Source: an uncultured Modestobacter sp.
GTDB taxonomy: Bacteria; Actinomycetota; Actinomycetes; Mycobacteriales; Geodermatophilaceae
NCBI RefSeq assembly: GCF_947486615.1
Contig: NZ_CANKUD010000006.1
Location: 62,001 to 126,000 of the forward strand
DNA: 64,000 bases
Direction: 5' to 3'
Shown here: piece after piece, positions 1,816 through 55,715 of the stretch
Layout of the letters: each line of letters opens with the position of its first letter
Numbering within the stretch: the first letter of the stretch is position 1
Program-made: the position numbers and the translations under genes
The notes under the pieces: generated by a model
What the model was told of the DNA's origin: nothing
The model's input: the letters and a program-made list of their open reading frames with translations, nothing else
The model's database searches: none

Positions 1816-1871
1816 GGCCCTCCTGCAGGGTCCCGCCGCGAGCTGGCGAGTGGTGGGGGGCAGGAGGGTCC
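1816..1871 (+). repeat. Dispersed intergenic hairpin element, copy A
   Basis: A 56-base element sharing its core with copies at 3461, 21769, 54580 and 55660. The outer stem CCCTCCTGC (1818-1826) pairs perfectly with GCAGGAGGG (1860-1868). The inner stem uses CCCGCCGC and GTGGTGGG, with G.T pairs. Unlike the other copies it does not follow a stop codon: it lies between two divergent genes. Confidence 0.8.
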
Positions 1872-2009
1872 TTCTGCTACCCGGGCGGCGCGGGATGACA
1901 CACGGGTGTGAACGGGTCGCCGGCGTGGGTAGGCCGCGACGACGCACCGTCCGGGGCCCAGCCACGGCCCCGCCCGTACTCCCGAACACACGAAGGAGCT
2001 CCCCGTCCC

Positions 2010-3137
2010 ATGGACGTGACCTTCCTGCAGCCGGTCTTCGCAGCCTCCGGCCCCTACGCCACGGTCTGCGCCGACATCACGCACAACACCGAGAACGCCG
2101 ACACCGAGGTGGGTCTCCGGGTCCGCGCGGTGGGCGAGCAGCTGACCGAGCAGGGCGCGCCGGCCCAGGTCGTCGACGCGGTGCGCGAGCGTCTCCTGCA
2201 GACCAACGACGGCGGTCAGCTGGCCACCCTCCGCGGTCGCGCGCTCGTCGTGGCCGCCGACGGCTCGGTGGTGCTGGACGAGGTCCTCGCCGACGCGCCG
2301 CGCGACCCCGTCGCCCGCTGGTCGCCCGCCCCGGACCTGATGCCGGTGCTGCGCCAGCTCGCCGGCCGGGTGCCGCACGTGGTCGTCTTCGCCGACCGGA
2401 TCGGCGCCGACGTCGCGGTGGCCACCCTCGCCGACCACCCCGAGGACCAGGACACCATCGAGGGCGACGGCTTCCACGCCCGCAAGGTGAAGGTCGGCGG
2501 CTGGGCGCACAACACCTACATGCACACCGCGGAGAACCAGTGGGAGGAGAACGCCGACAGCGTGGCGGGCGAGCTCCACTCGCTGGTCACCCGGGACGCG
2601 GCGCAGTTCGTCCTGCTCGCCGGTGACGTGCGGGCCCGCCAGCTGATCAGCGACAAGGCCAGCAAGGAGGTCGGCGACGTCCTCGTCTCGATCGAGGAGG
2701 GCGGCCGGGCCGCCGGCGCCGACCGGGAGGTCGTCGAGCAGCGCGCCGTCGAGCTGGTCGCCGAGCACGAGGCCCACGAGCAGGCCCGTGTGGTCGAGCA
2801 GGTGCAGGCAGCCTCCGCGCACGGCCTCGCCGTGACCGGGACGGCGCTGGTCGTCGAGGCGCTGCGCAAGGCCCAGGTCGAGACGCTGGTGCTGGCCGAC
2901 CAGCTCGACGACGAGCAGCTGTTCGTCGGCTCCGACCCGCTGCAGGTCGGGGTGGGTGCCGACGACATGGCCGCCCTCGGGGTCGGCGACGCCCAGCGCG
3001 TCCCGGCCGACCAGGCGCTGCTGCGCGCTGCGGTCGGCAGCGACGCTGCGGTCGTCGTCGTGCCCCGCACCGCGATGCCCGGTGACATCCCGGTGGCCGC
3101 GGTCCTCCGCTACACCGACGACTCGACGCCCAGCTGA
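2010..3137 (+). CDS. Vms1/baeRF-family protein (Rv2629-like)
   Basis: A 375-residue soluble protein resembling mycobacterial Rv2629 and the bacterial eRF1-like family 2 (baeRF2/Vms1 clade), a group related to peptidyl-tRNA hydrolases and release factors acting on stalled ribosomes. The N-terminal half carries the divergent eRF1 domain-1-like fold. The central part (HNTYMHTAENQWEENAD, about residues 168-184) and the C-terminal RNase-H-like/L7Ae-like region (VVEALRKAQVETLVLADQL) fit the family layout. The ATG at 2010 is chosen over upstream starts because of the SD AAGGAGCT 8 bases ahead. In mycobacteria this family is dormancy-linked; whether it acts on ribosomes here is inference. Confidence 0.8.
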   Translation: MDVTFLQPVFAASGPYATVCADITHNTENADTEVGLRVRAVGEQLTEQGAPAQVVDAVRERLLQTNDGGQLATLRGRALVVAADGSVVLDEVLADAPRDPVARWSPAPDLMPVLRQLAGRVPHVVVFADRIGADVAVATLADHPEDQDTIEGDGFHARKVKVGGWAHNTYMHTAENQWEENADSVAGELHSLVTRDAAQFVLLAGDVRARQLISDKASKEVGDVLVSIEEGGRAAGADREVVEQRAVELVAEHEAHEQARVVEQVQAASAHGLAVTGTALVVEALRKAQVETLVLADQLDDEQLFVGSDPLQVGVGADDMAALGVGDAQRVPADQALLRAAVGSDAAVVVVPRTAMPGDIPVAAVLRYTDDSTPS

Positions 3138-3198
3138 CCCCGGTCGGCACCCATCCCACCGGCCGCGATGCGGCCACTGGACAGAACGGAGCACCACC

Positions 3199-3456
3199 AT
3201 GACCGACCCCCACCAGGCCGCCACCCCGCCGGGCACCGACCCGGCCGACATCGAGCAGCGGGGCGCCATCGCCGAGGCGCTGGGCAAGGAGGTGTGGCCG
3301 GCCGACAAGGACGCCCTCGTCGCCAAGGCCCAGGAGTCCAACGCCCCCGACCGCGTCCTCGCCTCGCTGAACCGGCTGCCGGCGCACGCCCAGTTCGCCA
3401 ACGTGCAGGACGTCGCCGAGGCCCTGGGCATCGGCACCGAGCAGCAGCGCTTCTGA
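3199..3456 (+). CDS. DUF2795 domain protein
   Basis: An 85-residue soluble protein. Residues 20-85 form a DUF2795-like module (LASLNRLPAHAQFANVQDVA followed by EALG), common in actinobacteria, often in several copies per genome, with no assigned function. The ATG at 3199 follows a weak SD (CGGAGCACC). It lies 61 bases after the Vms1-like gene on the same strand, so co-transcription is plausible. Copy B of the hairpin element begins 4 bases after its stop codon. Confidence 0.85.
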   Translation: MTDPHQAATPPGTDPADIEQRGAIAEALGKEVWPADKDALVAKAQESNAPDRVLASLNRLPAHAQFANVQDVAEALGIGTEQQRF

Positions 3457-3460
3457 CGAA

Positions 3461-3517
3461 GGACCCCCTTGCCCCCCCCACCACTCGCGAGCTCGTGGCG
3501 GGACCCTGCAAGGGGCC
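3461..3517 (-). repeat. Dispersed intergenic hairpin element, copy B
   Basis: Same family as copy A, opposite orientation. CCCCTTGC (3465-3472) pairs with GCAAGGGG (3508-3515). It begins 4 bases after the stop of the DUF2795 gene, preceded by the shared flank GAAGGACC. Confidence 0.85.
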
Positions 3518-3563
3518 AGCGGGGCGCGGTGTCGTCCATCGCTCCCGGGGTAAGGGGGACCTC

Positions 3564-3788
3564 ATGCCCGACATGAAGGACCCCTCGCCCGAGGCGATCG
3601 CCAACGTCACCGAGCACAACGTCGAGACCCGGGCGCAGCTGCTGCCCGAGGAGCGCTCCAGCGGGCCGAGCGCCGACCCGGAGAAGCAGGCCGCGGTCAT
3701 CCTGGCCGAGTCCGAGGAGCGCACCGTGCACGCCGACCCGGACGACGCGCAGGGTGGTCACCGGCAGTCCTCCGACACCGCCGACTGA
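3564..3788 (+). CDS. Small acidic hypothetical protein
   Basis: A 74-residue, highly charged, Glu/Asp/Ala-rich protein with no hydrophobic segment and no recognised domain ([20 protein letters not shown] near the start). The ATG at 3564 has a good SD (AAGGGGGAC). It is probably a small, largely disordered cytoplasmic protein like others that accompany DUF2795 and ChaB genes in stress-tolerant actinobacteria; that association is inference. It ends just before a strong bidirectional hairpin. Confidence 0.65.
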
Positions 3789-3806
3789 CCCGCACCGCCG
3801 ACCGAC

Positions 3807-3847
3807 CCGCACCGCCCCGGGGGCTCAGCGCCCCCGGGGCGGTGCGG
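3807..3847. terminator. Bidirectional terminator hairpin
   Basis: Perfect 18-bp arms (3807-3824 and 3830-3847) with a 5-base loop lie between two convergent genes. The loop contains the stop codon of the LacI gene and the right arm encodes its last residues. There is no T-tract, as is usual in high-GC actinobacteria. Confidence 0.75.
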
Positions 3848-4847
3848 TGCTCTCCCGGACCACCAGCGCCGTGGCCAGCTCCAGCCGCGGCACCTCCAGC
3901 TCCTCGCCACGGACCAGCCGCAGCACGGTGCGCGCGGCCAGCGCGCCCATCTCCGACAGCGGCTGGTGCACCGTGGTCAGCGGGGGAGAGGACCAGCGGG
4001 CACCCGGCAGGTCGTCGAAGCCCACGATGCTGACGTCCTCCGGTACCCGAAGACCCCGCTGCCGCACCGCCTCGTAGGCGCCCAGCGCCATCTGGTCGTT
4101 CGCCGCGACGATCGCCGTCGGCGGCTCGGGGTGGGCCAGCAGCTCGGCGCCGAGCCGGAACCCCGACTCGTGCTCGAAGTCGCCGACGAGCAGCAGTTCC
4201 GGGTCGACGGTGAGCCCGGCCGCCTCCACCGCGGCGCGGTGCCCGTCCAGCCGGGCGCGGCTGGCCAGCAGGGCCGGGATGCCGGCGATCACGCCGATCC
4301 GCCGGTGCCCGAGCCCGATCAGGTGCTCGGTGGCGCTGAGCCCGCCGGCCCAGTTGGTCGCCCCGATCGTGGGCACGTCCATCGCCGGGACGCCGGCCGG
4401 GTCGATGACCACCGCCGGGACGTGCAGCCGGCGCAGCTCCGCGGCCAGCGTCGGGTCGACCTCGTTGGTCACCAGGATGGCGCCGTCGCTGGCCCGGCCG
4501 GCCAGGTTGTCCAGCCAGCTGCGGGTGTCGCTGGCCCGGCGGTGGGTGGCGGTGACCACCGTGCCCACCCCCTCGGCGTGGGCGGCGTCCTCGACGCCCC
4601 GGATGATCTCCACCGCCCACGGGCTGTCCAGGTCGTTGAAGACCAGGTCGATCAGCCGCGCGGTGGTGCTCGTCCGGCCGCCCCGGCGGCGGTAACCGTG
4701 GTCACGCAGCAGCTGCTCCACCCGTTCCCGGGTGTGCGGGGCGACGTCGGAGCGGCCGTTGAGCACGCGGGAGACCGTCGGCACGGAGACCCCGGCCTCC
4801 GCGGCGATGGTCGCGATCGTGACGCCGCGGGCCGGGGTGTCGGTCAC
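3825..4847 (-). CDS. LacI-family transcriptional regulator
   Basis: A 340-residue regulator. Residues 7-30 form the LacI helix-turn-helix ([20 protein letters not shown], then LNG). Residues 60-335 are the periplasmic-binding-protein-like sensor domain with typical landmarks: [26 protein letters not shown] and [20 protein letters not shown]. It probably senses a sugar, but no sugar operon is adjacent, so target and ligand are unknown. The GTG at 4847 follows GAGGAGG; longer frames upstream are rejected because they lack family similarity. Confidence 0.92.
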
Positions 4848-4944
4848 TGGGTCCTCCTCATCCGCCGACAGCCTAGGGCGCGAGCACGCAGCGCATGGTG
4901 CGCGTGCCCGCTGGGTAGACCCGGGCGCGACGAGAGGAGCCACC

Positions 4945-5370
4945 ATGCCGAAGACGACGAAGAGCGGCGACGCGAAGCAGGACGAGATCCCCAGCACCCT
5001 GCAGCGCTCGGACGAGAAGGCCCAGCGCACGTTCGCCAAGGCCCACGACTCGGCCGCCGAGGAGTACGGCGACGAGCAGCGGGCCAACCGGGTCGCGTGG
5101 GGCGCGGTCAAGCACACCCACGAGAAGGTGGGCGACCACTGGGAGCCCAAGGACCACGAGGGGCCCAGCGACCAGCAGTCGGCCGAGGGCAACGCCGACA
5201 CCGATCTGGACAGCAAGGGCGGGGTCGACGCCAACGCCTCCAAGGCCCACCTCTACGACCTCGCCAAGGACGCCGGCATCGAGGGTCGCTCGACGATGGA
5301 CAAGGAGGAGCTGGCCGACGCGCTGCAGAAGTCGAACGACCGGAAGACCGCCGAGGCCCGCGGGAAGTGA
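4945..5370 (+). CDS. ChaB-family protein with C-terminal Rho-N/SAP-like motif
   Basis: A 141-residue soluble protein. Residues 10-75 match the ChaB fold (IPSTLQRSDEKAQRTFAKAH, later WGAVKHTHEK). The C-terminal 35 residues (KAHLYDLAKDAGIEGRSTMD, then KEELADAL) form a Rho-N/SAP-like helical hairpin typical of nucleic-acid-binding tails. ChaB was named from E. coli cation-transport regulation, but its molecular role is uncertain. The start ATG 4945 has SD GAGAGGAGC. A K+ channel gene follows 18 bases downstream. Confidence 0.87.
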   Translation: MPKTTKSGDAKQDEIPSTLQRSDEKAQRTFAKAHDSAAEEYGDEQRANRVAWGAVKHTHEKVGDHWEPKDHEGPSDQQSAEGNADTDLDSKGGVDANASKAHLYDLAKDAGIEGRSTMDKEELADALQKSNDRKTAEARGK

Positions 5371-5388
5371 CCCGGCCAGACTGACCGG

Positions 5389-6183
5389 GTGACTCGGGAG
5401 GACCTGCGCCGGCGCTACGAAGAGGTCAGCCAGTGGCCGCTGGTGGTGCTGGCGCTGCTGTTCGTGGCGGCCTACGCCTGGGGAGTGTTGCGGCCGGACC
5501 TGCCCGGCTGGCTCCGGAGCGCCCTCGCGCTGGTCACGCTGGTGACCTGGCCGGTGTTCCTGGCCGACTACCTGCTGCGGCTGGCGCTCGCCGAGCAGCG
5601 CTGGCGGTTCGTCCGGCAGAACTGGGTGGACGGCGTCGCGGTGCTGCTGCCCCTGCTGCGGCCGCTGCGCATCGTCAGCCTGGTACGGGTCGCCCGGGTG
5701 CTCGACCGCCGGCTCACCGTCACCCTGCACGGCCGGGTCGCCGCCTACGTCACCCTCACCGCCTCGCTGGTCGTCTTCATGGCCTCCCTGGCCGCCTACG
5801 ACGCCGAACGCGGCGCCCCGGACGCGCAGATCACCAGCTACGGCGACGCCCTGTGGTGGGCGCTGACCACGATCACCACGGTCGGCTACGGCGACGAGTA
5901 CCCGGTCACCACCGAGGGCCGGCTGGTCGCCGGGCTGCTCATGGTCGGGGGCATCGCCCTGCTCGGTGTGGTCACCGCCGCGGTCGCCTCCTGGTTCGTG
6001 GGCCGGGTCGCCGACGCCGCCCGGGCCGAGGACGACGCCGCGGACGCCGCTGCCGACGAGGCGATGCGCGCCGAGGTGCGCGCGCTGGCCGAGGAGGTGC
6101 GCCGGCTGCGCGCCGAGCTGGCCGGGGACGGGCCCACCGCCCCGGCCCCGGCCCCGGCCGCTGGGGTCAGGCCGACGGGATGA
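5389..6183 (+). CDS. Potassium channel family protein
   Basis: A 264-residue inner-membrane channel. There are four N-terminal hydrophobic segments with an Arg-rich S4-like helix (RPLRIVSLVRVARVLDRRL, about residues 85-104), then the pore loop with the K+ selectivity filter TTVGYGD (about residues 163-169), then the inner helix (LLMVGGIALLGVVTAAVASW). A short charged coiled-coil tail (EEVRRLRAELAG) suggests tetramerisation. It lacks an RCK domain. GTG start at 5389, 18 bases after chaB, so the two may be co-transcribed. Its 3' end overlaps the convergent peptidase gene by 17 bases. Confidence 0.9.
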   Translation: MTREDLRRRYEEVSQWPLVVLALLFVAAYAWGVLRPDLPGWLRSALALVTLVTWPVFLADYLLRLALAEQRWRFVRQNWVDGVAVLLPLLRPLRIVSLVRVARVLDRRLTVTLHGRVAAYVTLTASLVVFMASLAAYDAERGAPDAQITSYGDALWWALTTITTVGYGDEYPVTTEGRLVAGLLMVGGIALLGVVTAAVASWFVGRVADAARAEDDAADAAADEAMRAEVRALAEEVRRLRAELAGDGPTAPAPAPAAGVRPTG

Positions 6184-7489
6184 GGATCAGCTCGGTCTGC
6201 CGCCGGTCCAGGTACTCCACCCCGGCCGCGGTGAGCGCGATGCCCTGCTCCAGCGCCATCCGGACCAGCTGACCGCCCCACTCGGGCACCGGCACCCGCA
6301 CGCACAGCTCGAGGGCGTAGACGGTGTCCAGGTGCACGGGGGCCTGTCCCGCGCCGGGGACGCCGTCCTGCTGGTCCCACATGCCGATCGCCGGGCCCGC
6401 CCCGTGGCCGTGCACGCCGACCGGGTGGGAGTAGACGTCGCCGTCGATCCCGGCGGCGGCCGCGGCGGCGCGGGCCGCGGCCAGCACCTCGTCCCCGGTG
6501 CGGCCGGGGCGCAGTTCCGCGGTGGTCAGGTCCTGCATGCGATTGCCGACGCCCAAGGCGGCGACCAGCCCGGCCGGCGCGGCCGTCTCACCCGGGCGCA
6601 GCACGTAGGCGTTGCGCTGGGTGTCGGTCATCAGGCCCAGGCTGGACAGGCCCACGTCGCAGTGCACCAGGTCGCCGGGCTGCACGACGGCGTCGTAGGG
6701 CACGCCGGGCAGCACGGTGCCGCGCTCGTCGGCCAGCGGGCTGCCGGCGCGCTGCAGCCCGACGGTGGGCTGGAACCACGGGTCGACGCCGAGGTCGGCG
6801 AAGCGCTGCCGGATCCACCAGGCGACGTCCAGGGCGGTGGTCTCCCCGACGGTGATCACGGCGGGGGAGAAGGCCTCGTCGATCACCTCGTGCACCAGCC
6901 GGTTCATCGCGTGCAGCGCGCCGATCTCCTCCGGCAGCCGGGTCTCCAGCCAGCCGACCGCCAGCGCCTCGGCCGAGACCAGCTTCTCCGCGTGCGGCCC
7001 CAGGGCCCCGACCAGCAGCTGGTGCTCGGTGTGGGAGAGCCCGTCGGCGTGGGCGAACACCCGGGAGACGTCGACGCCGATGGTGCGCGGCGCGGCCTGG
7101 TCCACGAACCGGCGGACCGCCGCCCACTGCGCGTCCTCCGCGGAGAGCCCCTGCTGGTCGTCGGCCTCCCAGGCGGGGAGGAACTGCCCGACCGGGTACC
7201 GGGAGACGGCGACCGCGGTGACGCCGTCGTCGCTGCGGTGGAACATCAGGATCGTGCGCCGCCGGGCCGACAGCCAGGTCGCCGGCAGCAGCGTCGGGAG
7301 CACCGGGTCCTCGTTGTACTCCCGGCCGATGACCACCCACAGGTCGATCCCGGCCCGGTCCATCAGCCCGGGCAGGAGGTCCAGCAGCCGCTGGGTCAGC
7401 CAGCGGTCGCGGACGTCGGCCTGGTCCCGGAGGGGGAGGGGCACCGTGCGGGTGGGGTCCGGGGTGGCGCGCTCGGCGATCACGGTCAT
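6167..7489 (-). CDS. M24-family metallopeptidase (Xaa-Pro aminopeptidase-like)
   Basis: A 440-residue cytoplasmic peptidase. The N-terminal half is a creatinase/prolidase N-domain-like region. The C-terminal pita-bread domain has the metal ligand order Asp (LVHCDVG), Asp (LMTDTQRN), His (GVHGHGAG), Glu (YALELCVRV) and Glu (MALEQGIALTAAG). This is consistent with a dinuclear M24 enzyme cleaving Xaa-Pro bonds, though substrate specificity cannot be read from sequence. The ATG at 7489 is chosen because the family-like sequence begins there (MTVIAERATPDPTRTVPLPL). Confidence 0.85.
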   Translation of the reverse strand: MTVIAERATPDPTRTVPLPLRDQADVRDRWLTQRLLDLLPGLMDRAGIDLWVVIGREYNEDPVLPTLLPATWLSARRRTILMFHRSDDGVTAVAVSRYPVGQFLPAWEADDQQGLSAEDAQWAAVRRFVDQAAPRTIGVDVSRVFAHADGLSHTEHQLLVGALGPHAEKLVSAEALAVGWLETRLPEEIGALHAMNRLVHEVIDEAFSPAVITVGETTALDVAWWIRQRFADLGVDPWFQPTVGLQRAGSPLADERGTVLPGVPYDAVVQPGDLVHCDVGLSSLGLMTDTQRNAYVLRPGETAAPAGLVAALGVGNRMQDLTTAELRPGRTGDEVLAAARAAAAAAGIDGDVYSHPVGVHGHGAGPAIGMWDQQDGVPGAGQAPVHLDTVYALELCVRVPVPEWGGQLVRMALEQGIALTAAGVEYLDRRQTELILIPSA

Positions 7490-7550
7490 GCAGGCAGGAA
7501 AGCAGACCGGCCGCCGTCCTGCTCGGAGTGCGCCCGCGGGGGCCGGCCGG

Positions 7551-8717: not shown

Positions 8718-8867
8718 GCCGCAGCCCGGCCGCTGGCATAACCGGCTGGGGCGCGCCATTTCCGGAACCCGCAGCTCCGTTGGTGCCGCTGTGACAGGAG
8801 GGGCGTGCCGGCCCGCCGGGTGCCAGGCTGGACGGCGCACGTGCACCCATCCGGAAGGAGAGCGACG

Positions 8868-9056
8868 TTGACCCAGGGGCCCTGGTTCTTCTGCCTGAAG
8901 CACCACACCGTCGAGGACCGGGACGGCTGCGCCGAGCGCCACCGCCTCGGCCCGTACGCCACCCGTGCCGAGGCCGAGTCCGCGCTGGAGAAGGTCGCCG
9001 AGCGCAACGAGCAGCAGGACGCCGCCGACGAGGCGTGGGAGGAGGGCCGGCGCTGA
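8868..9056 (+). CDS. Small SPOR-like hypothetical protein
   Basis: A 62-residue protein, MTQGPWFFCLKHHTVEDRDG followed by RLGPYATRAEAESALEKV, of a type often annotated in actinobacteria as a SPOR-like or conserved hypothetical protein. Two cysteines (in FFCLKHH and GCAERHR) could bind a metal together with the histidines. The TTG at 8868 is chosen because of the strong SD GGAAGGAG 5 bases ahead and because similarity starts there; upstream in-frame codons look non-coding. Confidence 0.75.
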   Translation: MTQGPWFFCLKHHTVEDRDGCAERHRLGPYATRAEAESALEKVAERNEQQDAADEAWEEGRR

Positions 9057-9147
9057 CCCGCGACCGGCCCGATCGGCCGGGTCGCGACGGTCGGGGCATG
9101 ATCCTCGGGGGAGCGTCCGGCAGGGCGCCCGAGGGACTGGAGGGGTC

Positions 9148-9843: not shown

Positions 9844-9849
9844 GCATGC

Positions 9850-20487: not shown

Positions 20488-21762
20488 GTGCTCCGTCGTC
20501 CGCTCCGTCCCGTCTCCGCCGTCCTCTCCCTCGGCACGCTCGCCGTGCTGGCCGCGGCCGGCCCGGCCACCGCCGCCCCGGCGCGCACCTTCGCGCCGCT
20601 GTCCACCGTCGAGGTGGGTGGCGAGGTCGCCGAGATCCTCTCCGCCACCCCGGACGGGCGCACGGTCGTCTACACCGACTCCGAGCTCGGCCGGATCGGT
20701 CTGGTCGACCTGAGCCGGCCCGCCGCCCCGCGGGACCTCGGGTCGATCGACGTGGGCGGCTCGCCGACGTCGGTCACCGTGCTCAGCAACGCGCGCTACG
20801 CCCTGGTCGCCGTGGACACCACCACCGACCTGACCCGGCCGTCGGGCCACCTGGCGGTCGTCGACCTGCCCCGCCGCGCGGTGGTGCGCACCATCGACCT
20901 GGGCGGCCAGCCCGACTCGATCGACGTCGGCCCGAGCGGGGTGTTCGCCGCCATCGCCATCGAGAACCAGCGCGACGAGGACATCGAGGTCGGCGACGTC
21001 GAGGGCGGCCTGCCGCAGCTGCCGGCCGGCTTCCTCTCCGTGGTCGACCTGCGCGGCCCGGTCAGCGCCTGGACCGCCGCGCGCGTCGAGCTGACCGGCC
21101 TGCCCGGCGCGGTGTTCGCCGAGGACCCGGAGCCGGAGTTCGTCGACGTCGACGGCCGGGACATCGCCGCGGTCACCCTGCAGGAGAACAACGCCGTCGC
21201 GCTGGTCGACCTGGCCCGTCAGCGGGTGGTCGGCTCCTTCTCGGCCGGCACCGTCACCCGCACCGACGCCGACCTGGTGGACGACGACGTGATCGCCTTC
21301 GACGACACGCTGGTCGCGCCGCGCGAGCCGGACGCCGTGCAGTGGACGCTGCGCGGCAACCTGGTCACCGCCGACGAGGGCGACCTGGCGCAGGAGCCCG
21401 CCGGCGGCCGCGGCTGGACGGTCTTCGACCAGACCGGCACGGTGCTCTACAGCAGCGGCGGGTCGGCCGAGCAGGCGCTCGCCGCGGCCGGGGCGTACCC
21501 GGACGGGCGCAGCGACGACAAGGGCGCGGAGTTCGAGGGCGCGGAGGTCGCCCGCATGCGCGGGGTCGACTACACCTTCATCGGCTCCGAGCGCGGGGAC
21601 GCCGTCCTGGTCTACGACACCGACCGGGACGCCGCGCCCGAGCTGCTCCAGGTGCTGCCCGTCGGCGATGCCCCCGAGGGGCTGCTCGCCATCCCCTCCC
21701 GCGGGCTGTTCGTCACCAGCAACGAGGACGACGGCACCCTGTCGGTCTTCGGCCTCCGCTGA
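20488..21762 (+). CDS. Secreted beta-propeller protein (choice-of-anchor I / phytase-esterase-like)
   Basis: A 424-residue exported protein. The signal peptide runs through LAVLAAAGPATAAPA (cleavage near residue 30). The mature part is a WD/YVTN-like propeller with repeated blades of the form PDGRTVVYTDSELGRIGLVD and LVAVDTTTD...GHLAVVDL. AVFAEDPEPEFVDV followed by VTLQENNAVALVDL is typical of the choice-of-anchor I/alkaline-phosphatase-like group. Catalytic function is not evident. GTG at 20488 follows GAGGTG. It is followed after 6 bases by copy C of the hairpin element. Confidence 0.82.
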   Translation: MLRRPLRPVSAVLSLGTLAVLAAAGPATAAPARTFAPLSTVEVGGEVAEILSATPDGRTVVYTDSELGRIGLVDLSRPAAPRDLGSIDVGGSPTSVTVLSNARYALVAVDTTTDLTRPSGHLAVVDLPRRAVVRTIDLGGQPDSIDVGPSGVFAAIAIENQRDEDIEVGDVEGGLPQLPAGFLSVVDLRGPVSAWTAARVELTGLPGAVFAEDPEPEFVDVDGRDIAAVTLQENNAVALVDLARQRVVGSFSAGTVTRTDADLVDDDVIAFDDTLVAPREPDAVQWTLRGNLVTADEGDLAQEPAGGRGWTVFDQTGTVLYSSGGSAEQALAAAGAYPDGRSDDKGAEFEGAEVARMRGVDYTFIGSERGDAVLVYDTDRDAAPELLQVLPVGDAPEGLLAIPSRGLFVTSNEDDGTLSVFGLR

Positions 21763-21768
21763 GAGAAA

Positions 21769-21824
21769 GGACCCCCCTGCCCCCCACCACTCGCACGCTC
21801 GTGGCGGGGCCCTGCAGGGGGGCC
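21769..21824 (-). repeat. Dispersed intergenic hairpin element, copy C
   Basis: Outer stem CCCCCCTGC (21772-21780) pairs with GCAGGGGGG (21814-21822). The flank AAAGGACC lies 6 bases after the propeller gene stop, between convergent genes. Compared with copy E the stem sequence differs on both sides and pairing is kept. Confidence 0.85.
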
Positions 21825-21843
21825 GAGGAGGACCCGGTCGTCG

Positions 21844-22857
21844 CTACGCGGCGACCGGGTCCTGCTCCCGCAGGCCGGAACGGCCGGCCTGCCAGGCGCC
21901 GAGCAGGTGCTCCGCGGTGAGCCCGTCCAGGGCCAGCGAGCACCGCGCGCCGAACAGCACGTCGGCGGCCAGGGACGGGTCCTCGGCGACCAGCGAGCCG
22001 CACATGTCCACCGAGGCGATCTGCTCGTGCACCGCGTCGGCCTCCACGTGCTCGTCGTAGAAGACCGTGGTCCGCTCGCCGAAGCCGAGGCGGCGCAGCC
22101 CCGCGGAGTACCGCCGGCTGGGCTCCGACGAGGTCATCTCGACCGCGGCGAGGTGGCCCAGGCAGGCGCCCCGCAGCGCCCGGTGCAGCCCGAACAGCGA
22201 CATCGTGTTGACCGAGGTGAAGGCCACCGCAGGGGCGTCGTCCCAGAGCGCGCCGTAGCCGGTGTCCAGGTCCAGATCGGCCATCATCCCGGCGAACAGC
22301 TGGCTGTGCATGCGCTCGACCGCACCGCCGCCGTACTCGTCGGCCTGGATCTCCACCATCGCCGCCTTGGCCCGGCCGCCGATCCGCGGGATGGCCCAGG
22401 TGTGCGGGTCGCCCTCCTTGAGGTGGTAGACCGACCGCAGGGTCAGGTACTCCCGCCACTGCTCGAGGGTGCCCTCCTTGGCCAGGTACCTCGACAGCGA
22501 CGGGCCGTCGTCGGCGTCGATGACCGCGGTCAGCTGCTGGTCCACCGGCTCGTCGGTGACCTCGACCGGGCTGACCAGCTCGCGCAGCGCGGCCAGGTGC
22601 CGCTGCTCGAGGAGCGCCCGCAGCCGCAGCAGGTCCGGGGCCCACTCCCAGGCGTCGTCCACGTCGTCGAAGCCGCGGTAGTGCAGCTCGTAGCAGATGG
22701 CCAGGCTCAGCTGCAGGTCGTCGTCGGTGAGCGGGCTGGTCGCCGAGGCCGCCAGCCCCTCGGCGGCGGCGAGGGTGCGCGGGCTGATGGTCGACCCGGC
22801 GGTGAGGTCCGCGCTCAGCGCGGCGCTGACGGGGCCCCGAGGCTTGGGAAGGCGCAT
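21844..22857 (-). CDS. Iron-containing redox enzyme family protein (haem-oxygenase-like di-iron oxidase)
   Basis: A 337-residue helical protein of the haem-oxygenase-like di-iron oxidase (HDO) family. Candidate metal ligands sit in VEIQADEYGGG (Glu, Asp, Glu), ERMHSQLF (His) and FYDEHVEADAVHE (Asp/Glu, His), matching the usual E-H-D/E-H pattern. Relatives perform N-oxygenation, C-C cleavage or related four-electron oxidations. No biosynthetic partner genes are adjacent, so the substrate is unknown. ATG at 22857 has no SD; a weak CATGAT box six bases upstream hints at a leaderless start. Confidence 0.85.
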   Translation of the reverse strand: MRLPKPRGPVSAALSADLTAGSTISPRTLAAAEGLAASATSPLTDDDLQLSLAICYELHYRGFDDVDDAWEWAPDLLRLRALLEQRHLAALRELVSPVEVTDEPVDQQLTAVIDADDGPSLSRYLAKEGTLEQWREYLTLRSVYHLKEGDPHTWAIPRIGGRAKAAMVEIQADEYGGGAVERMHSQLFAGMMADLDLDTGYGALWDDAPAVAFTSVNTMSLFGLHRALRGACLGHLAAVEMTSSEPSRRYSAGLRRLGFGERTTVFYDEHVEADAVHEQIASVDMCGSLVAEDPSLAADVLFGARCSLALDGLTAEHLLGAWQAGRSGLREQDPVAA

Positions 22858-44937: not shown

Positions 44938-44944
44938 TCCTGCG

Positions 44945-48738: not shown

Positions 48739-48749
48739 GCCGCGACGCC

Positions 48750-48792
48750 AGGAGGCCCCCGACCCGACGGATCGTCGGGTTGGGGGCCTCCT
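48750..48792. terminator. Bidirectional terminator hairpin
   Basis: 19-base arms (48750-48768 and 48774-48792), with one G-T pair and a 5-base loop, between convergent genes. Confidence 0.85.
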
Positions 48793-48812
48793 CGCGCGGG
48801 TGAGGCAGGCCG

Positions 48813-50324: not shown

Positions 50325-50331
50325 GCGTCCG

Positions 50332-50337
50332 ATCCTA
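50332..50337 (-). promoter_or_regulatory. -10 box, leaderless promoter of pepA
   Basis: TAGGAT on the minus strand, seven bases before the GTG at 50324. Confidence 0.6.
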
Positions 50338-50429
50338 GGGAGGTGGTGAGCACCGCGTAGGACCGGAGTCGGACCGGTCGCCCCCGTGCTGGTCACGGGC
50401 TCGGGGACCCGACCGTCCGGGTGCTCCAC

Positions 50430-50435
50430 TAGCGT
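50430..50435 (+). promoter_or_regulatory. -10 box, leaderless promoter of gcvT
   Basis: TAGCGT lies seven bases before the GTG at 50443. No glycine-riboswitch fold is visible between the divergent pepA and gcvT promoters. Confidence 0.55.
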
Positions 50436-50442
50436 GCTGCCG

Positions 50443-51561
50443 GTGAGCCCGCTGACCTCCCCCCTGCACGAACGCCACGCGGCCGCCGGCGCCAAGTTCG
50501 CCGACTTCGGCGGCTGGTCCATGCCGATCGAGTACGCCGGCGGCGGGGTGCTGGCCGAGCACACCTCGGTGCGCGAGGGCGTCGGCCTCTTCGACGTCTC
50601 GCACCTGGGCACCGCCACCGTCCGCGGACCCGGGGCGGCGGCGTACGTCAACGCCTGCCTGACCAACGACCTCGGCAAGATCGGACCGGGGCAGGCGCAG
50701 TACACGCTGTGCTGCGTCGCCGACGGTCAGCCCGACGCCGGCGGGGTGGTCGACGACCTGATCGTGTACCTGCACGGCCCGGACGACGTCCTGCTGGTGC
50801 CCAACGCCGCCAACGCCGCCGACGTCCTGGCCCGGCTGGCGGCCGATGCCCCGGCCGGTGTGACGGTCACCGACCGGCACACCGAGGTCGCCGTCCTGGC
50901 GTTGCAGGGGCCGCGGTCGGCCGAGGTCCTGGCCGCCGTGGGGCTGCCCGGTGGGCTGGACTACATGTCCTTCGCCGAGACGCCGGGCACCGGCGGCGAC
51001 GAGGTGACCGTGTGCCGCACCGGCTACACCGGGGAGCACGGCTACGAGCTGCTGGTGGCCGCCGACCGCGCCGGGCGGCTGTGGGACGCGCTGCTGGCCG
51101 CCGGGGCCCCGGAGCAGATCCGGCCCTGTGGTCTGGGCGCCCGGGACACCCTGCGCACCGAGATGGGCTACCCGCTGCACGGCCACGAGCTGGCCCGGGA
51201 CATCACGCCCAACCAGGCGCGGTCCGGCTGGGCGGTGGGCTGGCAGAAGGAGGCCTTCTGGGGGCGGGAGGCGCTGCAGGCGGAGAAGGCCGCCGGGCCG
51301 GCGCGGCGGCTGTGGGGCCTGCAGGCCCCCGGCCGAGGCATCCCGCGCCCCGGGATGGCCGTGCTCGACGGGGACGGCGCCCGGATCGGTGAGGTGACCA
51401 GCGGGACGTTCTCCCCGACGTTGCGCACCGGCATCGCGCTGGCGCTGCTGGACACCACGTCGGGTGTGGCCGAGGGCAGCGAGGTGTCGGTCGACGTCCG
51501 GGGCCGGCCGCAGCCGGTCGTCGTCCGCCGTCCGCCGTTCGTGGAGTCCCACGTCCGGTGA
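50443..51561 (+). CDS. gcvT: Glycine cleavage system aminomethyltransferase (T protein)
   Basis: A 372-residue THF-dependent T protein that takes the aminomethyl group from lipoylated H protein. Landmarks are [20 protein letters not shown] at the N-terminus, [35 protein letters not shown] and [20 protein letters not shown]. Length is normal. GTG 50443 is supported by the -10 box and by homology; the open frame extends only slightly further. It depends on lipoate made by LipA/LipB. Confidence 0.95.
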
Positions 51562-51568
51562 CCGAGTG

Positions 51569-51595
51569 CTCCCCGCCGCCGCCGGCGGCGGGGAG
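51569..51595. terminator. Terminator hairpin between convergent genes
   Basis: CTCCCCGCCGCC (51569-51580) pairs with GGCGGCGGGGAG (51584-51595), between gcvT and the YihY/BrkB gene. Confidence 0.75.
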
Positions 51596-51599
51596 CGGC

Positions 51600-52775
51600 T
51601 CAGCGCTTGGGGTGTGACTCCTTCGTCGGCACCGGCGGGTCGGGCATCCCGTCGGCGACGACCGCGTCGCGGCGGCCCATCGGCTGGGGCTCGCCCTCGG
51701 TGGTGTCGGCCGCGGTCTGGTGCTCGGTCTCGGCGTTGATCTCCGCGCCCAGCAGCACCAGGTAGCAGGTCAGGTACAGCCACAGCATCAGCACGATCAC
51801 CCCGGCGATGGCGCCGTAGGTCTTGTCGTAGGACCCGAAGTTGTCCACGTAGATGCTGAACAGCAGGCTGACGACCGCCCAGATGACGGTGACCACCAGC
51901 GAGCCGAGGCTGACCCAGCGCAGCTTGGGGGCGTCCCGGTCCGGGGCCAGCCGGTACAGGACGGCCAGGGACCCGGCGATCACGGCCAGCAGCAGCACCC
52001 ACCGCAGCACCTGGGCCAGGACGGTGCCGAGGACGCCGAGGGGCAGCGCGTCGAGCACGACGGGCACCACCGCGATGAGCGCGAAGGTGAGCAGCACGAA
52101 GACGATCGCGCCCAGGGTGAGACCCAGGGCGAGCGCCTTGCGCTTGACGAAGCTGCGGGTCTCCACCTCGTCGTAGGCGAGGTTCACCGCGGTGATCAGG
52201 TTGCCGGTGCCGCCCGAGGCGCTCCACAGCGCAGCCAGGATGGAGACGATCAGGCTGACGGTCAGCGCACCGCCGCTGTTCTCGGTGATGTTGGTCAGCT
52301 GGGTGGTGAGCAGGGTCTGGGCGCTCTCCGGCAGCTGGTCCGACAGCGAGGCGATCTGGCTGGCGACCTGGTCGGGGGAGGCCACCAGGCCGTAGATCGA
52401 GATGGTCGCGATCAGTGCGGGGAAGACGGCCAGGAAGGCGAAGAAGGCCACCCCGGCACCGATGATCGGCATGTTGTCGGCGTTGTTCTCCGCCCACGCC
52501 CGCTTGACGATCTGCAGCCAGCCGCGCGGGGGGATCTCCGTGGGCTTCTCGGCGTGCACCCCCGGCATCTCGCTGCCGCTGGGCACCTCGGGCGCGGGCC
52601 GGGCCGCCTCCCGCGTCTCGGTGGCCACCACCGTCGACGACGTGGCCCCGCCGGGCGGACCGCTCGCGTCGTCCCGCTGTTCGGCGGCACGGGCCGCGGC
52701 CCGCCGTTCCGCCTTCTCCTGCACGCGCGCACGGATGTTGTCCACGGCGCTGCCCGGTCGCCCGGTGTCGACCAT
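51600..52775 (-). CDS. YihY/BrkB-family inner membrane protein
   Basis: A 391-residue polytopic membrane protein. About 85 disordered N-terminal residues precede the YihY core: IIGAGVAFFAFLAVFPALIA, SASGGTGNLITAVNLAYDEV, RSFVKRKALALGLTLG and the final YLVLLGAEINAETEHQ, with about six helices. The name BrkB (serum resistance) or RNase BN is historical and not a reliable function. ATG 52775 has SD GAGGGG. It is downstream of the DUF4235/DUF3618/holin-like cluster on the same strand, 41 bases apart. Confidence 0.9.
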   Translation of the reverse strand: MVDTGRPGSAVDNIRARVQEKAERRAAARAAEQRDDASGPPGGATSSTVVATETREAARPAPEVPSGSEMPGVHAEKPTEIPPRGWLQIVKRAWAENNADNMPIIGAGVAFFAFLAVFPALIATISIYGLVASPDQVASQIASLSDQLPESAQTLLTTQLTNITENSGGALTVSLIVSILAALWSASGGTGNLITAVNLAYDEVETRSFVKRKALALGLTLGAIVFVLLTFALIAVVPVVLDALPLGVLGTVLAQVLRWVLLLAVIAGSLAVLYRLAPDRDAPKLRWVSLGSLVVTVIWAVVSLLFSIYVDNFGSYDKTYGAIAGVIVLMLWLYLTCYLVLLGAEINAETEHQTAADTTEGEPQPMGRRDAVVADGMPDPPVPTKESHPKR

Positions 52776-52816
52776 CTGGGTGGTCCCCTCGTCTCGGGTG
52801 GTGGTCGGCTCGCGGG

Positions 52817-53089
52817 TCAGTCGCCGGGCCAGTTGCCGGTCAGCCTGGTGAACCCGCGCGCGCCGGCCCGGTCGATCACGGCCTTGGTGGCGCCGAACAG
52901 CGCGCCCTGGACGGCGGCGGCCAGCACCACCTCGCGCATCCCGTACTCGCTCTGCAGGGCGCCCGGTGCGTCGTCCTCGTGGGCGACACGCTTCCACACC
53001 TGCTTGAAGGCCGCTCCGGAGAGCGCGCCGGCCAGCACGCTCCCCAGCAGACCGAACGGGCGGTAGACGGCCTTGGGGCTCGGGCTCAC
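52817..53089 (-). CDS. DUF4235 membrane protein
   Basis: A 90-residue protein with two hydrophobic segments (PFGLLGSVLAGALSGAAFKQ, then EVVLAAAVQGALFGATKAVI), ending in GFTRLTGNWPGD, the usual DUF4235 layout. Its function is unknown. GTG 53089 overlaps the DUF3618 stop (GTGA), indicating coupled translation within the envelope-protein cluster. Confidence 0.88.
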   Translation of the reverse strand: MSPSPKAVYRPFGLLGSVLAGALSGAAFKQVWKRVAHEDDAPGALQSEYGMREVVLAAAVQGALFGATKAVIDRAGARGFTRLTGNWPGD

Positions 53090-53736
53090 CGGAGGACCCG
53101 GGCCAGCGTGCCCCGCCAGCCGCTGCGCCGGCGGGTCAGCCGCTGGGCGGTGGCGCGCTGGGTCGCGGCCAGCTGGGCCGTCGCCGCGCGCTGGCTCGCG
53201 GTGAGCCGGGCGGCCGCGGCCCGCTGGGTGGTGGTGACCCGGGTGGTGGCCGTGTGCCGGCGCGCGGCCCGGGCTCGGGCCGCTGCCTTCCGCCGGGCGG
53301 CGGTGCGCTCGGCGGCCGCCCGGCGGGCCGCGGCGCGCTCCTGGCCGGCCCGGCGTGCGGCGCGGGCGGCTGCGGCACGGCGCTCGGCGGCCCCCTTCGC
53401 CGCTGCGCGCTCGGCCCGGCCGGCCCGACGACGCCTCCGCCAGGCGACCAGGCCCACCAGCGCGGACACGGCCGCGACCCCGCCGCCGATCACCGCCGGG
53501 GGGTTCTCCCGGTAGGTCTCGACCGCGGTGTCCTTGGTGCGGTTGACGCCCTCGACGGCCGAGGTCCGGGCGCGGTCGGCGCTCTCCTTGGCCCGGCCGG
53601 GGACGTCCAGGCGGTGGCTCAGCTCGTCCACGGTGCGCCCGAGCTGCTCGCGGGTCTGCTCGATGTCGGCCCGGATGGCGTCGGGGTCGGTGGGCCCGGC
53701 GCCGCCGTCCGGCTTGCTGCTGTCGGCTCCGGTCAT
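53086..53736 (-). CDS. DUF3618 membrane protein with long basic repeat tail
   Basis: A 216-residue protein. Residues 15-80 match DUF3618 (DAIRADIEQTREQLGRTVDE, then LSHRLDVPGRAKE). One membrane helix follows (AVIGGGVAAVSALVGLVAW, about residues 81-99). The C-terminal 115 residues are Arg/Ala-rich with degenerate repeats (TASQRAATAQLAATQRATAQ) likely to form a long basic helix that could bind nucleic acid or phospholipid; this tail is longer than I would expect. ATG and stop overlap both neighbours by 4 bases. Confidence 0.87.
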   Translation of the reverse strand: MTGADSSKPDGGAGPTDPDAIRADIEQTREQLGRTVDELSHRLDVPGRAKESADRARTSAVEGVNRTKDTAVETYRENPPAVIGGGVAAVSALVGLVAWRRRRRAGRAERAAAKGAAERRAAAARAARRAGQERAAARRAAAERTAARRKAAARARAARRHTATTRVTTTQRAAAARLTASQRAATAQLAATQRATAQRLTRRRSGWRGTLARVLR

Positions 53737-54176
53737 CGGGACGCACTCTCCTTCACGGTGGCGACGTCGGTCTTGACGCTGGAGATGGCCTCGGTCGGCA
53801 CCGGTGGGGCGGCCTGCTGCACGTCCTTCTTGCCGATCAGGGCGAGGACGCCGGCGAGGGCGAAGAGCACGACCGCGACGATCACCGCCGAGAGCCAGGC
53901 CGGGACGGCGAGGGCCAACGCCAGCACGGCGGCAGCGACGAGCACCTGCAGGCCGAGGAAGCCGAACAGCCCGGCCCCACCGAACAGGCCGGCGCCGACG
54001 CCGAGCTTCTTGGCCTTGGTGCTGACCTCGGCCTGGGCCAGGCGCATCTCGTCCCGGACCAGCCGGGTCAGCTGGTCGGAGAGCTGACCGATCAGCTCAC
54101 CGGTCGAGGCGTTCTCCGGGGCGGGTGGCGGTGCGGTCACGCGGCTCGCGCCGGCGCCCGGGATGGGCTGGCTCAT
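53733..54176 (-). CDS. Phage-holin-family (PF07332-type) membrane protein
   Basis: A 147-residue protein: an amphipathic helix (STGELIGQLSDQLTRLVRDE, about residues 24-43), then two adjacent membrane helices (LGLQVLVAAAVLALALAVPA and LSAVIVAVVLFALAGVLALI). This is the chromosomal actinobacterial 'phage holin' family, not evidence of a prophage. It is the first gene of the DUF3618-DUF4235-YihY run, with 4-base overlap to DUF3618. Such sets are common in actinobacteria and are thought to be envelope-stress proteins. ATG 54176. Confidence 0.88.
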   Translation of the reverse strand: MSQPIPGAGASRVTAPPPAPENASTGELIGQLSDQLTRLVRDEMRLAQAEVSTKAKKLGVGAGLFGGAGLFGFLGLQVLVAAAVLALALAVPAWLSAVIVAVVLFALAGVLALIGKKDVQQAAPPVPTEAISSVKTDVATVKESASR

Positions 54177-54308
54177 GGGTCCTCCGCGGTCTCGGGCGTG
54201 GGTGGTGCCTGCACCATGCCCATGCACTTACCTTGTAAACCAAGATCGCCTGGACGTCGCGGAGGCCTTGCCACAGCGGCGGGAGCTGCCGTCGGGCCGC
54301 CGGGTCGC

Positions 54309-54314
54309 TAACCT
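54309..54314 (+). promoter_or_regulatory. -10 box, leaderless promoter of small hypothetical gene
   Basis: TAACCT lies exactly six bases before the ATG at 54321. Confidence 0.6.
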
Positions 54315-54320
54315 CCCGCC

Positions 54321-54533
54321 ATGAGCTGGACCTGGCAGCTGGAAGACGCCTCGGGTGCGCCCGTGGACCCCGCGACGCTCGGGGTGGAGGTGCCCGAGTG
54401 CGACAACCAGGGTGACGCCGAGTCCTGGCTGGGGGAGACCTGGCGCGACCTGCTGGAGCGTGGCGTCGCGACGGTCACGCTCCAGCAGGACGGCGAACGC
54501 GTCTACGGCCCGATGGGCCTGGCCGCCTCCTGA
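54321..54533 (+). CDS. Small conserved hypothetical protein
   Basis: A 70-residue acidic protein, MSWTWQLEDASGAPVDPATL, then AESWLGETWRDLLERGVATV and VYGPMGLA at the end. Similar short proteins occur widely in actinobacteria, with no function known to me. The leaderless -10 box supports both the gene and its start. It is followed by a hairpin and then by copy D of the dispersed element. Confidence 0.78.
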   Translation: MSWTWQLEDASGAPVDPATLGVEVPECDNQGDAESWLGETWRDLLERGVATVTLQQDGERVYGPMGLAAS

Positions 54534-54535
54534 CC

Positions 54536-54566
54536 GGGGTGGACGCCGCCGAGCGACGTCCACCCC
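54536..54566. terminator. Terminator hairpin
   Basis: GGGGTGGACG (54536-54545) pairs with CGTCCACCCC (54557-54566), immediately after the small hypothetical gene. Confidence 0.65.
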
Positions 54567-54579
54567 GCCCCGGCCCCCT

Positions 54580-54634
54580 GGCCCCCTTGCAGAGCCCGCC
54601 GCGAGCCTGCGAGTGGTGGGGGGCGAGGGGGTCC
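54580..54634 (+). repeat. Dispersed intergenic hairpin element, copy D
   Basis: Outer stem CCCCCTTGC (54582-54590) pairs with GCGAGGGGG (54623-54631) using one T-G wobble. On the minus strand it begins 4 bases after the aldo/keto reductase stop, with the shared flank GAAGGACC. Confidence 0.85.
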
Positions 54635-54638
54635 TTCC

Positions 54639-55622
54639 TCAGCCCCGGGAGGTCTTGGCCGGGTCGCGCTCGACGACGTCGCCCAGTGCCTCGTCGATAC
54701 GGGCCATGACCTCGGCCGGCAGCTCCACGCCGGCGGCCTTGACGTTGTCGTGCACCTGCTCGGGGCGGCTGGCCCCGATGATCGCCGCGGCGACGTTCTT
54801 GTTCTGCAGCACCCAGGCGACGGCCAGCTGGGCCATCGACAGACCGAGCTCGTCGGCGATCGGGCGCAGCTGCTGGACGCGGGTCAGCACGTCGTCGGTC
54901 AGGTAGTTCTTCATCGACCCGCCCACGGTGGCGTGACCGCCCCGGCTGTCGACCGGCGGCTGCTGTCCGGGCAGGTACTTGCCGGTGAGCACACCCTGGG
55001 CCAGCGGCGACCAGACGATCTGGGAGAGGCCCTCCTGCTCGCTGGTGGGCACCACCTCGGCCTCGATCACCCGCCACAGCATCGAGTACTGCGGCTGGTT
55101 GCTGATCAGCTGCACCTTGAGCTCGCGGGCGAGCTCGGCGGCGGCGGCGATCTCCTCCGCGCGCCACTCCGAGACGCCGAGGTACAGCACCTTGCCCTGC
55201 CGCACCAGGTCGGCGAAGGCGGTCATCGTCTCCTCCAGCGGCACCGAGGAGTCGTACCGGTGGGCCTGGTAGAGGTCGACGTAGTCGGTCTGCAGTCGCT
55301 GCAGCGACGCATTGCAGCTCTCCACGATGTGCTTGCGGGACAGGCCGCGGTCGTTGGCGCCGGGGCCGGTGGGCCAGTAGACCTTGGTGAAGATCTCCAG
55401 GCCCTCGCGACGCTGGCCGGCCAGCGCCCGGCCCAGCACCGACTCGGCCTTGGTGCCGGCGTACACGTCCGCGGTGTCGAAGGTGGTGATCCCGACGTCG
55501 AGGGCGGCCCGCACGCAGGCGTGCGCGGCGTCCTCCTCGACCTGGCTACCGTGGGTCAGCCAGTTGCCGTACGCGATCTCGGAGATGGTCAGGCCGGAAC
55601 GGCCCAGGCGTCGTGTCTGCAC
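54639..55622 (-). CDS. Aldo/keto reductase family protein
   Basis: A 327-residue NADP(H)-dependent TIM-barrel oxidoreductase related to the voltage-gated K+ channel beta-subunit group. The catalytic tetrad is visible: Asp in GITTFDTADVYAG (with its Tyr), Lys in IFTKVYW, His in YQAHRYDS. NADP-binding residues lie in LISNQPQYSM and IIGASRPEQVHDNVKA. Physiological substrate unknown. GTG 55622 has a TACCGT box six bases upstream. Copies D and E of the dispersed hairpin lie directly at its 3' and 5' sides. Confidence 0.92.
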   Translation of the reverse strand: MQTRRLGRSGLTISEIAYGNWLTHGSQVEEDAAHACVRAALDVGITTFDTADVYAGTKAESVLGRALAGQRREGLEIFTKVYWPTGPGANDRGLSRKHIVESCNASLQRLQTDYVDLYQAHRYDSSVPLEETMTAFADLVRQGKVLYLGVSEWRAEEIAAAAELARELKVQLISNQPQYSMLWRVIEAEVVPTSEQEGLSQIVWSPLAQGVLTGKYLPGQQPPVDSRGGHATVGGSMKNYLTDDVLTRVQQLRPIADELGLSMAQLAVAWVLQNKNVAAAIIGASRPEQVHDNVKAAGVELPAEVMARIDEALGDVVERDPAKTSRG

Positions 55623-55628
55623 GACACG

Positions 55629-55634
55629 ACGGTA
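55629..55634 (-). promoter_or_regulatory. -10 box, leaderless promoter of aldo/keto reductase gene
   Basis: TACCGT on the minus strand, exactly six bases before the GTG at 55622. Confidence 0.5.
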
Positions 55635-55659
55635 CTTAGGCCGGGTAATGACCAGCCGC

Positions 55660-55715
55660 GGCCCCCTCGCAGGGTCCCGCCACGAGCCTGCGAGTGGTGG
55701 GGGGCGAGGGGGTCC
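55660..55715 (+). repeat. Dispersed intergenic hairpin element, copy E
   Basis: Outer stem CCCCCTCGC (55662-55670) pairs perfectly with GCGAGGGGG (55704-55712). On the minus strand it starts 4 bases after the DUF3043 stop, with flank TAAGGACC. An alternative inner stem CTCGCAGG/CCTGCGAG is also possible in this copy. Confidence 0.85.

What the first reader, a model, noticed from the sequence alone, without database searches (positions are those of the whole stretch)
1816..55715. Family of five co-varying hairpin elements, mostly placed 4-6 bases after stop codons
Copies at 1816-1871, 3461-3517, 21769-21824, 54580-54634 and 55660-55715 share a ~56-base core. The outer stem differs between copies, yet pairing is kept: CTCGC/GCGAG (E), CCTGC/GCAGG (A and C), CTTGC/GCAAG (B), and CTTGC/GCGAG with a G-T wobble (D). 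The inner CCCGCCRC/GTGGTGGG stem is conserved with G-T pairs that form only on one strand. In B-E the other strand reads stop, 4-6 bases, then RAAGGACC (TAAGGACC in E). Compensatory change implies selection on a folded single strand: either an RNA (3'-end element) or a REP-like single-stranded DNA unit mobilised in trans. I know of no named family matching it.
Basis: partly seen in the sequence, partly recalled or inferred. Interest (0 to 1): 0.78.

Follow-up and report, generated by a model that had tools for sequence, protein, structure and literature searches.

The report
Family-wide hairpin repeat abutting stop codons
Many bacteria of one actinobacterial family carry tens to, by estimate, hundreds of copies of a roughly 60-base DNA hairpin, usually parked right after the end of a gene; its two arms change together in evolution, so the folded shape matters, yet the enzyme that spreads comparable repeats elsewhere was not found.

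Summary
The five copies are the only full ones in the window. They belong to a family of about 290 copies in this genome (48 in a 774-kb sample), found in 102 of 112 Geodermatophilaceae genomes and in 4 of 172 other genomes of the order. Arms covary: 15 of 21 pairs change on both sides in 88 own-genome copies, 8 of 21 at one orthologous site. Stop-codon placement is real: 52 of 88 copies lie within a 3-base register of an antisense gene's stop, against 0.9% of random intergenic placements. Copies come and go between relatives. REP/RAYT membership fails: a Y1 transposase was found in 0 of 112 family genomes. Best reading: a REP-like dispersed hairpin acting as a gene 3'-end structure, spread by an unidentified non-Y1 route. 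Function is inferred. The strand antisense to the gene folds better (86 of 88), which a plain mRNA terminator does not explain. Paper tools failed, so nothing is claimed about the literature.

The parts
1814..1877 (+). Copy A of the hairpin element (outer stem CCCTCCTGC/GCAGGAGGG); no called gene stop abuts it; orthologous copy in G001
   Evidence: 86.6 bits; ortholog; context
3455..3519 (-). Copy B; follows the stop of the DUF2795 gene 3199-3456
   Evidence: 70.1 bits; gene
21763..21826 (-). Copy C; follows the stop of gene 20488-21762; convergent gene 21844-22857; site lacks a same-orientation copy in G001, G005, G014 and G018 (opposite orientation in G014)
   Evidence: 90.6 bits; orthologs
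54578..54640 (+). Copy D; follows the stop of the aldo/keto reductase gene 54639-55622 (the model span overlaps the stop codon)
   Evidence: 76.6 bits; orthologs; gene
55658..55721 (+). Copy E; follows the stop of the DUF3043 gene; 12 of 20 orthologous sites in the genus have a model match, two of them degenerate
   Evidence: 88.9 bits; orthologs
3199..3456 (+). Gene ending at copy B (DUF2795, 85 aa)
20488..21762 (+). Gene ending at copy C (choice-of-anchor I domain)
54639..55622 (-). Gene ending at copy D (aldo/keto reductase)
55720..56904 (-). Gene ending at copy E (DUF3043; longest reading frame, start not settled)
   Evidence: my caller starts it at 56334

Best explanation
These are copies of a short interspersed hairpin found almost only in Geodermatophilaceae: C-GGCC + variable outer stem + AGGG internal loop + conserved inner stem with a mostly fixed G-T + GAGCnnGCGA loop region + returning arms + GGTCCTTC. 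Shown: many copies per genome, covariation, preferred orientation and register to stop codons, presence/absence differences at orthologous sites. Inferred: the copy acts as a gene 3'-end structure. In the mRNA of the upstream gene its base usually starts 4 nt after the stop codon, inside the ribosome's downstream footprint (recalled); it would form when the terminating ribosome leaves and then block 3' exonucleases and/or end transcription, from either side between convergent genes. Inferred: it spreads as a non-autonomous unit by a route without a recognisable Y1 transposase, and old copies decay or are deleted through the hairpin.
For: Copies and range. Covariation: 15 of 21 pairs with double changes in 88 own-genome copies and in 105 copies from named loci, both on alignments fitted to the model; 8 of 21 among 10 copies at the orthologous E site; 43 distinct outer 5' arms, 60 of 88 perfectly complementary. 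Position: 64 of 88 have an antisense gene's stop within -12..+15 and 52 of 88 within -2..0; random 5.1% and 0.9%. Other named loci: 69 of 102 and 46 of 102. All three stop codons occur (TGA 54, TAG 6, TAA 4), the TAG and TAA cases often one or two bases further out (by eye). Fifteen of 43 convergent left neighbours have their stop within 8 nt of the other end. Some orthologous sites without the element hold an unrelated hairpin in the same gap, e.g. at the G018 L262 site (by eye). Turnover: own copies have a same-orientation copy at 3 of 28 mapped orthologous sites.
Against: The strand antisense to the gene folds better (mean -38.4 against -32.1 kcal/mol, 86 of 88), and the conserved G-T pairs become A-C mismatches in the mRNA. 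No U-tract follows the mRNA-strand hairpin (1.2 T in 12 nt, expected 1.5). Convergent gene ends without the element fold more strongly (-43.2 against -33.8, 60 sampled in each group). Ordinary hairpins sit at loose distances (stem start quartiles 6-24 convergent, 7.5-38.5 tandem) while element genes give 7-7.25 tandem and 7-15.5 convergent, so the tight register is not what ordinary 3' hairpins need here. Some sites keep a generic hairpin beside the element (G014 L247, own D, by eye). 24 of 88 copies have no antisense stop nearby. No mobility machinery was identified and no target duplication seen.
Confidence: 0.5

Rival explanations
1. A selfish single-stranded-DNA hairpin: an unidentified nuclease or transposase recognises the folded strand and inserts it next to stop-codon sequences; the position reflects target choice plus tolerance, not function.
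For: Better fold on one strand; preferred orientation; sharp ends; G014's two copies above 55 bits are missing from G001, G005 and G018, while the copies shared within G001/G005/G014 score 45 bits or less; C before TGA in 49 of 54 element genes against 480 of 696 others.
Against: Y1 found in 0 of 112 genomes, Y2 in 1 of 112; all three stop codons are used; no target duplication. Two high-scoring copies are shared across species: A with G001, E with G018, and E shows compensatory change across the genus.
Confidence: 0.27
2. A one-way terminator against antisense or convergent transcription: it works on the better-folding strand and stops polymerase just before it enters the gene backwards.
For: Element-strand fold more stable in 86 of 88; TTC follows the stem (3.8 T in 12 nt against 1.2 on the other strand, a count that includes letters of the gene's stop codon); the element ends at the stop codon.
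Against: Hardly a U-tract; left neighbours are as often codirectional (44) as convergent (43).
Confidence: 0.15
3. A classical REP element moved by a RAYT (Y1 transposase).
For: Short imperfect palindrome, many dispersed copies, mostly extragenic.
Against: PF01797 found in 0 of 112 family genomes, control positive in 5 of 14.
Confidence: 0.03
4. Fragments of an ordinary transposon end or MITE.
For: Dispersed copies, presence/absence differences.
Against: Conservation stops at C-GGCC on one side and at TTC plus the stop-codon letters on the other; no target duplication; stem arms covary.
Confidence: 0.03

Closest known systems
REP elements / REPINs of enterobacteria and pseudomonads (recalled)
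   Same: Short imperfect palindrome, many copies, mostly extragenic, often close behind stop codons
   Different: Y1/RAYT gene found in 0 of 112 family genomes; tight register to the stop codon; extensive outer-stem covariation
Intrinsic transcription terminators of actinobacteria without a U-tract (recalled)
   Same: Stable hairpin at gene 3' ends, sometimes filling the gap between convergent genes
   Different: Conserved sequence and shape across copies, better fold on the antisense strand, weaker on the gene strand than the sampled generic convergent gene ends of this genome
MIRU repeats of mycobacteria (recalled)
   Same: Short intergenic actinobacterial repeat placed at stop codons
   Different: MIRUs are recalled as units, often tandem, with small reading frames; here a single covarying hairpin
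Uptake-sequence terminators of Neisseria (recalled)
   Same: Lineage-specific repeated sequence forming hairpins behind genes
   Different: The outer stem sequence is free here (43 arms among 88 copies), so there is no fixed uptake word in it

Membership tests
REP/RAYT system | Y1 (PF01797) transposase in the genome or lineage | tested here: not met
   found in 0 of 1 own, 0 of 23 genus, 0 of 112 family genomes; control rings in 5 of 14
REP/RAYT system | Imperfect palindrome in many dispersed, mostly extragenic copies | tested here: met
REP/RAYT system | Conserved foot tetranucleotide (GTAG, recalled) at the hairpin base | tested here: not met
   Outside GGCC only one C is conserved (69 of 88); TTC follows the 3' arm
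Intrinsic terminator | GC-rich hairpin at gene 3' end | tested here: met
   (copies A, B, E)
Intrinsic terminator | U-tract after the hairpin on the mRNA strand | tested here: not met
   1.2 T in 12 nt, expected 1.5
Intrinsic terminator | Ends transcription | not testable with these tools
   needs RNA 3'-end data
MITE / transposon end | Target-site duplication | tested here: not met
   shared flank words of 3-6 bases no commoner than in shuffled pairings, 88 copies
Known Rfam RNA family | Match at gathering score | tested here: not met
   0 in the window; in 54500-55800 only sub-threshold miRNA/snoRNA matches, one of them (14.5 bits, gathering 42) over copy D

The most novel reading that the evidence does not exclude
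A mobile hairpin that is directed to translational stop codons (any of the three) in one orientation and register, by a machinery that is neither a recognisable Y1 or Y2 transposase nor a reverse transcriptase, possibly acting on or guided by the mRNA 3' end, in an actinobacterial family known (recalled) for radiation and desiccation tolerance.
Probability: 0.18. Interest if true: 0.85.

Novelty: new variant of a known kind. Interest (0 to 1): 0.6.

Why it matters
If confirmed, it is a REP-like repeat family with some hundreds of copies and no recognisable RAYT, in which the link to stop codons is tight enough to test directly: either a lineage has standardised many of its gene ends with a mobile part, or an unknown mechanism places DNA at stop codons.

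Tried and rejected
RAYT/Y1 partner: rejected. Y2 (PF04986): 1 of 112, in a genome without element matches; its control rang in none of 14 genomes, so that negative is weak. Reverse transcriptase (PF00078): 49 of 112, and not found in G004 and G041, which have many copies. Target duplication: none. Strand of selection from wobble counts: 53 G-T against 19 A-C after leaving out three pairs (two dominated by G-T, one poorly formed); but 26 of the 53 sit in one pair, the inner stem without that pair shows 8 against 10, and the covariance model itself favours G-T, so this is only suggestive. DNA-parameter folds of the five copies were not striking: z between -2.8 and +0.7. Generic-terminator replacement: seen at some sites, not all. 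Plasmids and phages: no match to copy E. Rfam: no family. A first alignment without orienting the copies and a first gene caller were discarded. Literature: searches (searches; look-ups) failed or timed out and 74 was malformed; no paper was seen, so all named families are from recall and nothing is said about what is or is not in print.
Full report
OBSERVATION. The five copies align over a core of about 56 bases when B and C are reversed. A covariance model (R1) from 42 own-genome copies, the five included, finds in the window these five at 90.6 (C), 88.9 (E), 86.6 (A), 76.6 (D) and 70.1 (B) bits, the next best match being 17.9 bits. Model spans: A 1814-1877 +, B 3455-3519 -, C 21763-21826 -, D 54578-54640 +, E 55658-55721 +. 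Of the BLAST rows, the five below 47 bits, L015 (a duplicate of copy C) and a truncated composite (L040) were left out of the alignment.

STRUCTURE. Outer stem of 11 pairs (GGCCCCnnnGC / GCnnnGGGGTCC), AGGG internal loop on one side and one base on the other, inner stem CCCGCCRC/GYGGTGGG, loop region GAGCnnGCGA. In 42 copies 95.8% of cells pair, 10 of 21 pairs show double changes, and slid partners pair at 45-60%. In 88 own-genome copies 15 of 21 pairs show double changes. In 105 copies from 70 of the 80 listed named loci it is also 15 of 21. These two alignments are fitted to the model and lean towards its structure. There are 43 distinct 5' outer arms among 88 copies, 60 of 88 perfectly complementary to their 3' arm.

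NUMBER AND RANGE. The DNA search scored 40 candidates of 115 and the model search 150 of 12,237, giving 152 matches; both are capped. In 774 kb (window, nearly all of the rest of contig C6, and C7, C9 and C18) there are 48 copies at 49 bits or more, about 290 when scaled to 4.70 Mb (the contigs were not chosen at random). Genus: 23 of 23 genomes. Family: 102 of 112 genomes, 9 of 12 genera, with 47 scored candidates per genome and strict filters. Order: 32 of 200, namely 28 of 28 sampled family members and 4 of 172 others, with one or two matches each, one of them weak (8.4e-4) (the family share is read from handles and kinship, 148 genomes without a match are not listed). I did not check those four for transfer or contamination. 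Genus g1 is probably Modestobacter, because the length of contig G005:C1 equals that of a listed Modestobacter contig (inference).

POSITION. I used my own composition-based gene caller (866 genes, 87.6% coding in 0.92 Mb), not a published one. Of 88 copies, 64 have the stop of an antisense gene between -12 and +15 of the model end, 52 at -2..0 and 45 at exactly -2, in most cases TGA-N-GAAGGACC on the gene strand. Random intergenic placements give 5.1% and 0.9% (5000 placements in 505 gaps). In other named loci it is 69 of 102 and 46 of 102 (3 of 105 near contig ends dropped). Stops: TGA 54, TAG 6, TAA 4 in element genes; 696, 75, 6 in others; C before TGA in 49 of 54 against 480 of 696. Left neighbours: 44 codirectional, 43 convergent, one without; 15 convergent stops lie within 8 nt of the other end. 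The 24 copies without an antisense stop include A; in at least three of them (L024:1998, L186:11307, L058:2059) an antisense reading frame runs through the element and ends behind it.

COMPARISON OF ORTHOLOGOUS SITES. C site: among 12 orthologs of 79% identity or more in 11 genomes (one distant homolog, L245, dropped) one (L241) has a same-orientation copy of another subfamily, one (L237) an opposite-orientation copy beside an AGGACCCCCTC remnant, two (both from G009) an outer-stem-only hairpin, and eight no model match (hairpins read by eye). E site: of 20 orthologs 12 have a model match (two of them, L206 and L208, degenerate) and 8 none. I aligned own plus 9, leaving out L206, L208 and L216 (inner part duplicated in tandem); 8 of 21 pairs show double changes and 90.3% of cells pair against 46-61% with slid partners; four of the five measures exceed all 500 shuffles, the number of further pair types is reached by 33 of 500. 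Sequences such as GGCC-TTCGTTCAG in G001 look like a deletion through the hairpin (by eye). A site: the copy is shared with G001 and differs at few positions, while the flanks are 76-86% identical. Synteny over 100 kb in G001, G005, G014 and G018: own copies have a same-orientation copy at 3 of 28 mapped sites and only an opposite one at 1. Within the trio G001/G005/G014 it is 12 of 18 (each direction counted), and the shared copies score 45 bits or less, while G014's two copies above 55 bits are absent from G001, G005 and G018. Against this pattern, A (own and G001) and E (own and G018) are high-scoring and shared. Presence was judged only, so decayed copies count as absent; at one G014 site G005 keeps GGGGTCCGTCAG, which may be a remnant. 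Where the element is specific to one species it appears to replace part of the spacer up to the stop codon (by eye). No target duplication.

MACHINERY. PF01797 (Y1): found in 0 of 1, 0 of 23 and 0 of 112 genomes, control positive in 5 of 14. PF04986 (Y2): 1 of 112, control silent. PF00078: 49 of 112, absent from some element-rich genomes.

WHICH STRAND. The strand antisense to the gene folds better in 86 of 88. After its stem 3.8 T occur in 12 nt against 1.2 on the gene strand, but that window includes the gene's stop-codon letters, and only TTC follows the stem. Wobble counts point the same way but are biased. This is the main result against a simple mRNA terminator. Other convergent gene ends of the genome often carry stems of 9 bp or more (134 of 164; start median 15 nt, quartiles 6-24), tandem ones less often (147 of 300; quartiles 7.5-38.5), while in element genes the stem start has quartiles 7-7.25 (tandem) and 7-15.5 (convergent) (where the count starts at the first uninterrupted pair; the GG at the base is usually 4 nt after TGA).

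EXPLANATION. I commit to a dispersed hairpin that serves as a gene 3'-end structure and spreads by a non-Y1 route (0.5). Shown: family, fold-level covariation, register, turnover. Inferred: RNA-level function, mobility as a unit. By analogy (recalled, not read): E. coli REPs close behind stop codons are reported to affect ribosomes and mRNA stability; the geometry here is similar. Rivals: selfish ssDNA hairpin (0.27), antisense-directed terminator (0.15), REP/RAYT (0.03), transposon ends (0.03).

VERDICT. Observation confirmed; interpretation partly supported; new variant of a known kind; interest 0.6.

Noticed in passing
window 2010-3137: A bacterial archaeo-eukaryotic release-factor-like gene (baeRF family 2, Pfam PF18844) lies between copies A and B; probably coincidence, but curious beside a stop-codon-linked repeat.
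   Followed up: no
own genome C9:26576-26671, C7:183237-183334, C2:138040-138145: Three composite copies in which a first unit lacks its 3' outer arm and runs into a second, different unit; the C9 and C2 ones share an extended 3' edge CCACCTTC.
   Followed up: partly
own genome, e.g. C7:196512, C6:218840, C18:39450: A second subfamily (GGCCCCGTCCCGAGGCTCGYCCCGAGC..GAGGGRTGAGGAGGACGGGGTCC) with the same layout, often the same position.
   Followed up: partly
G014, G005 and own orthologs of the G018 L262:13927 site (G001 less regular): The gap holds a long hairpin around ATGGCCAT whose arms differ between species yet stay largely complementary (by eye); may be a separate conserved 3'-end or operator motif.
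   Followed up: no
L250:11067-11129 and the matching sites in G001, G005, G018: An old, decayed copy recognisable by eye in four species shortly upstream of a start codon, ending at a TATCCT promoter-like box (the model lists it in three of them); possible exaptation.
   Followed up: no
G164, G173, G225, G248: One or two element matches each in other families of the order; transfer or contamination not checked.
   Followed up: no
   Followed up: no
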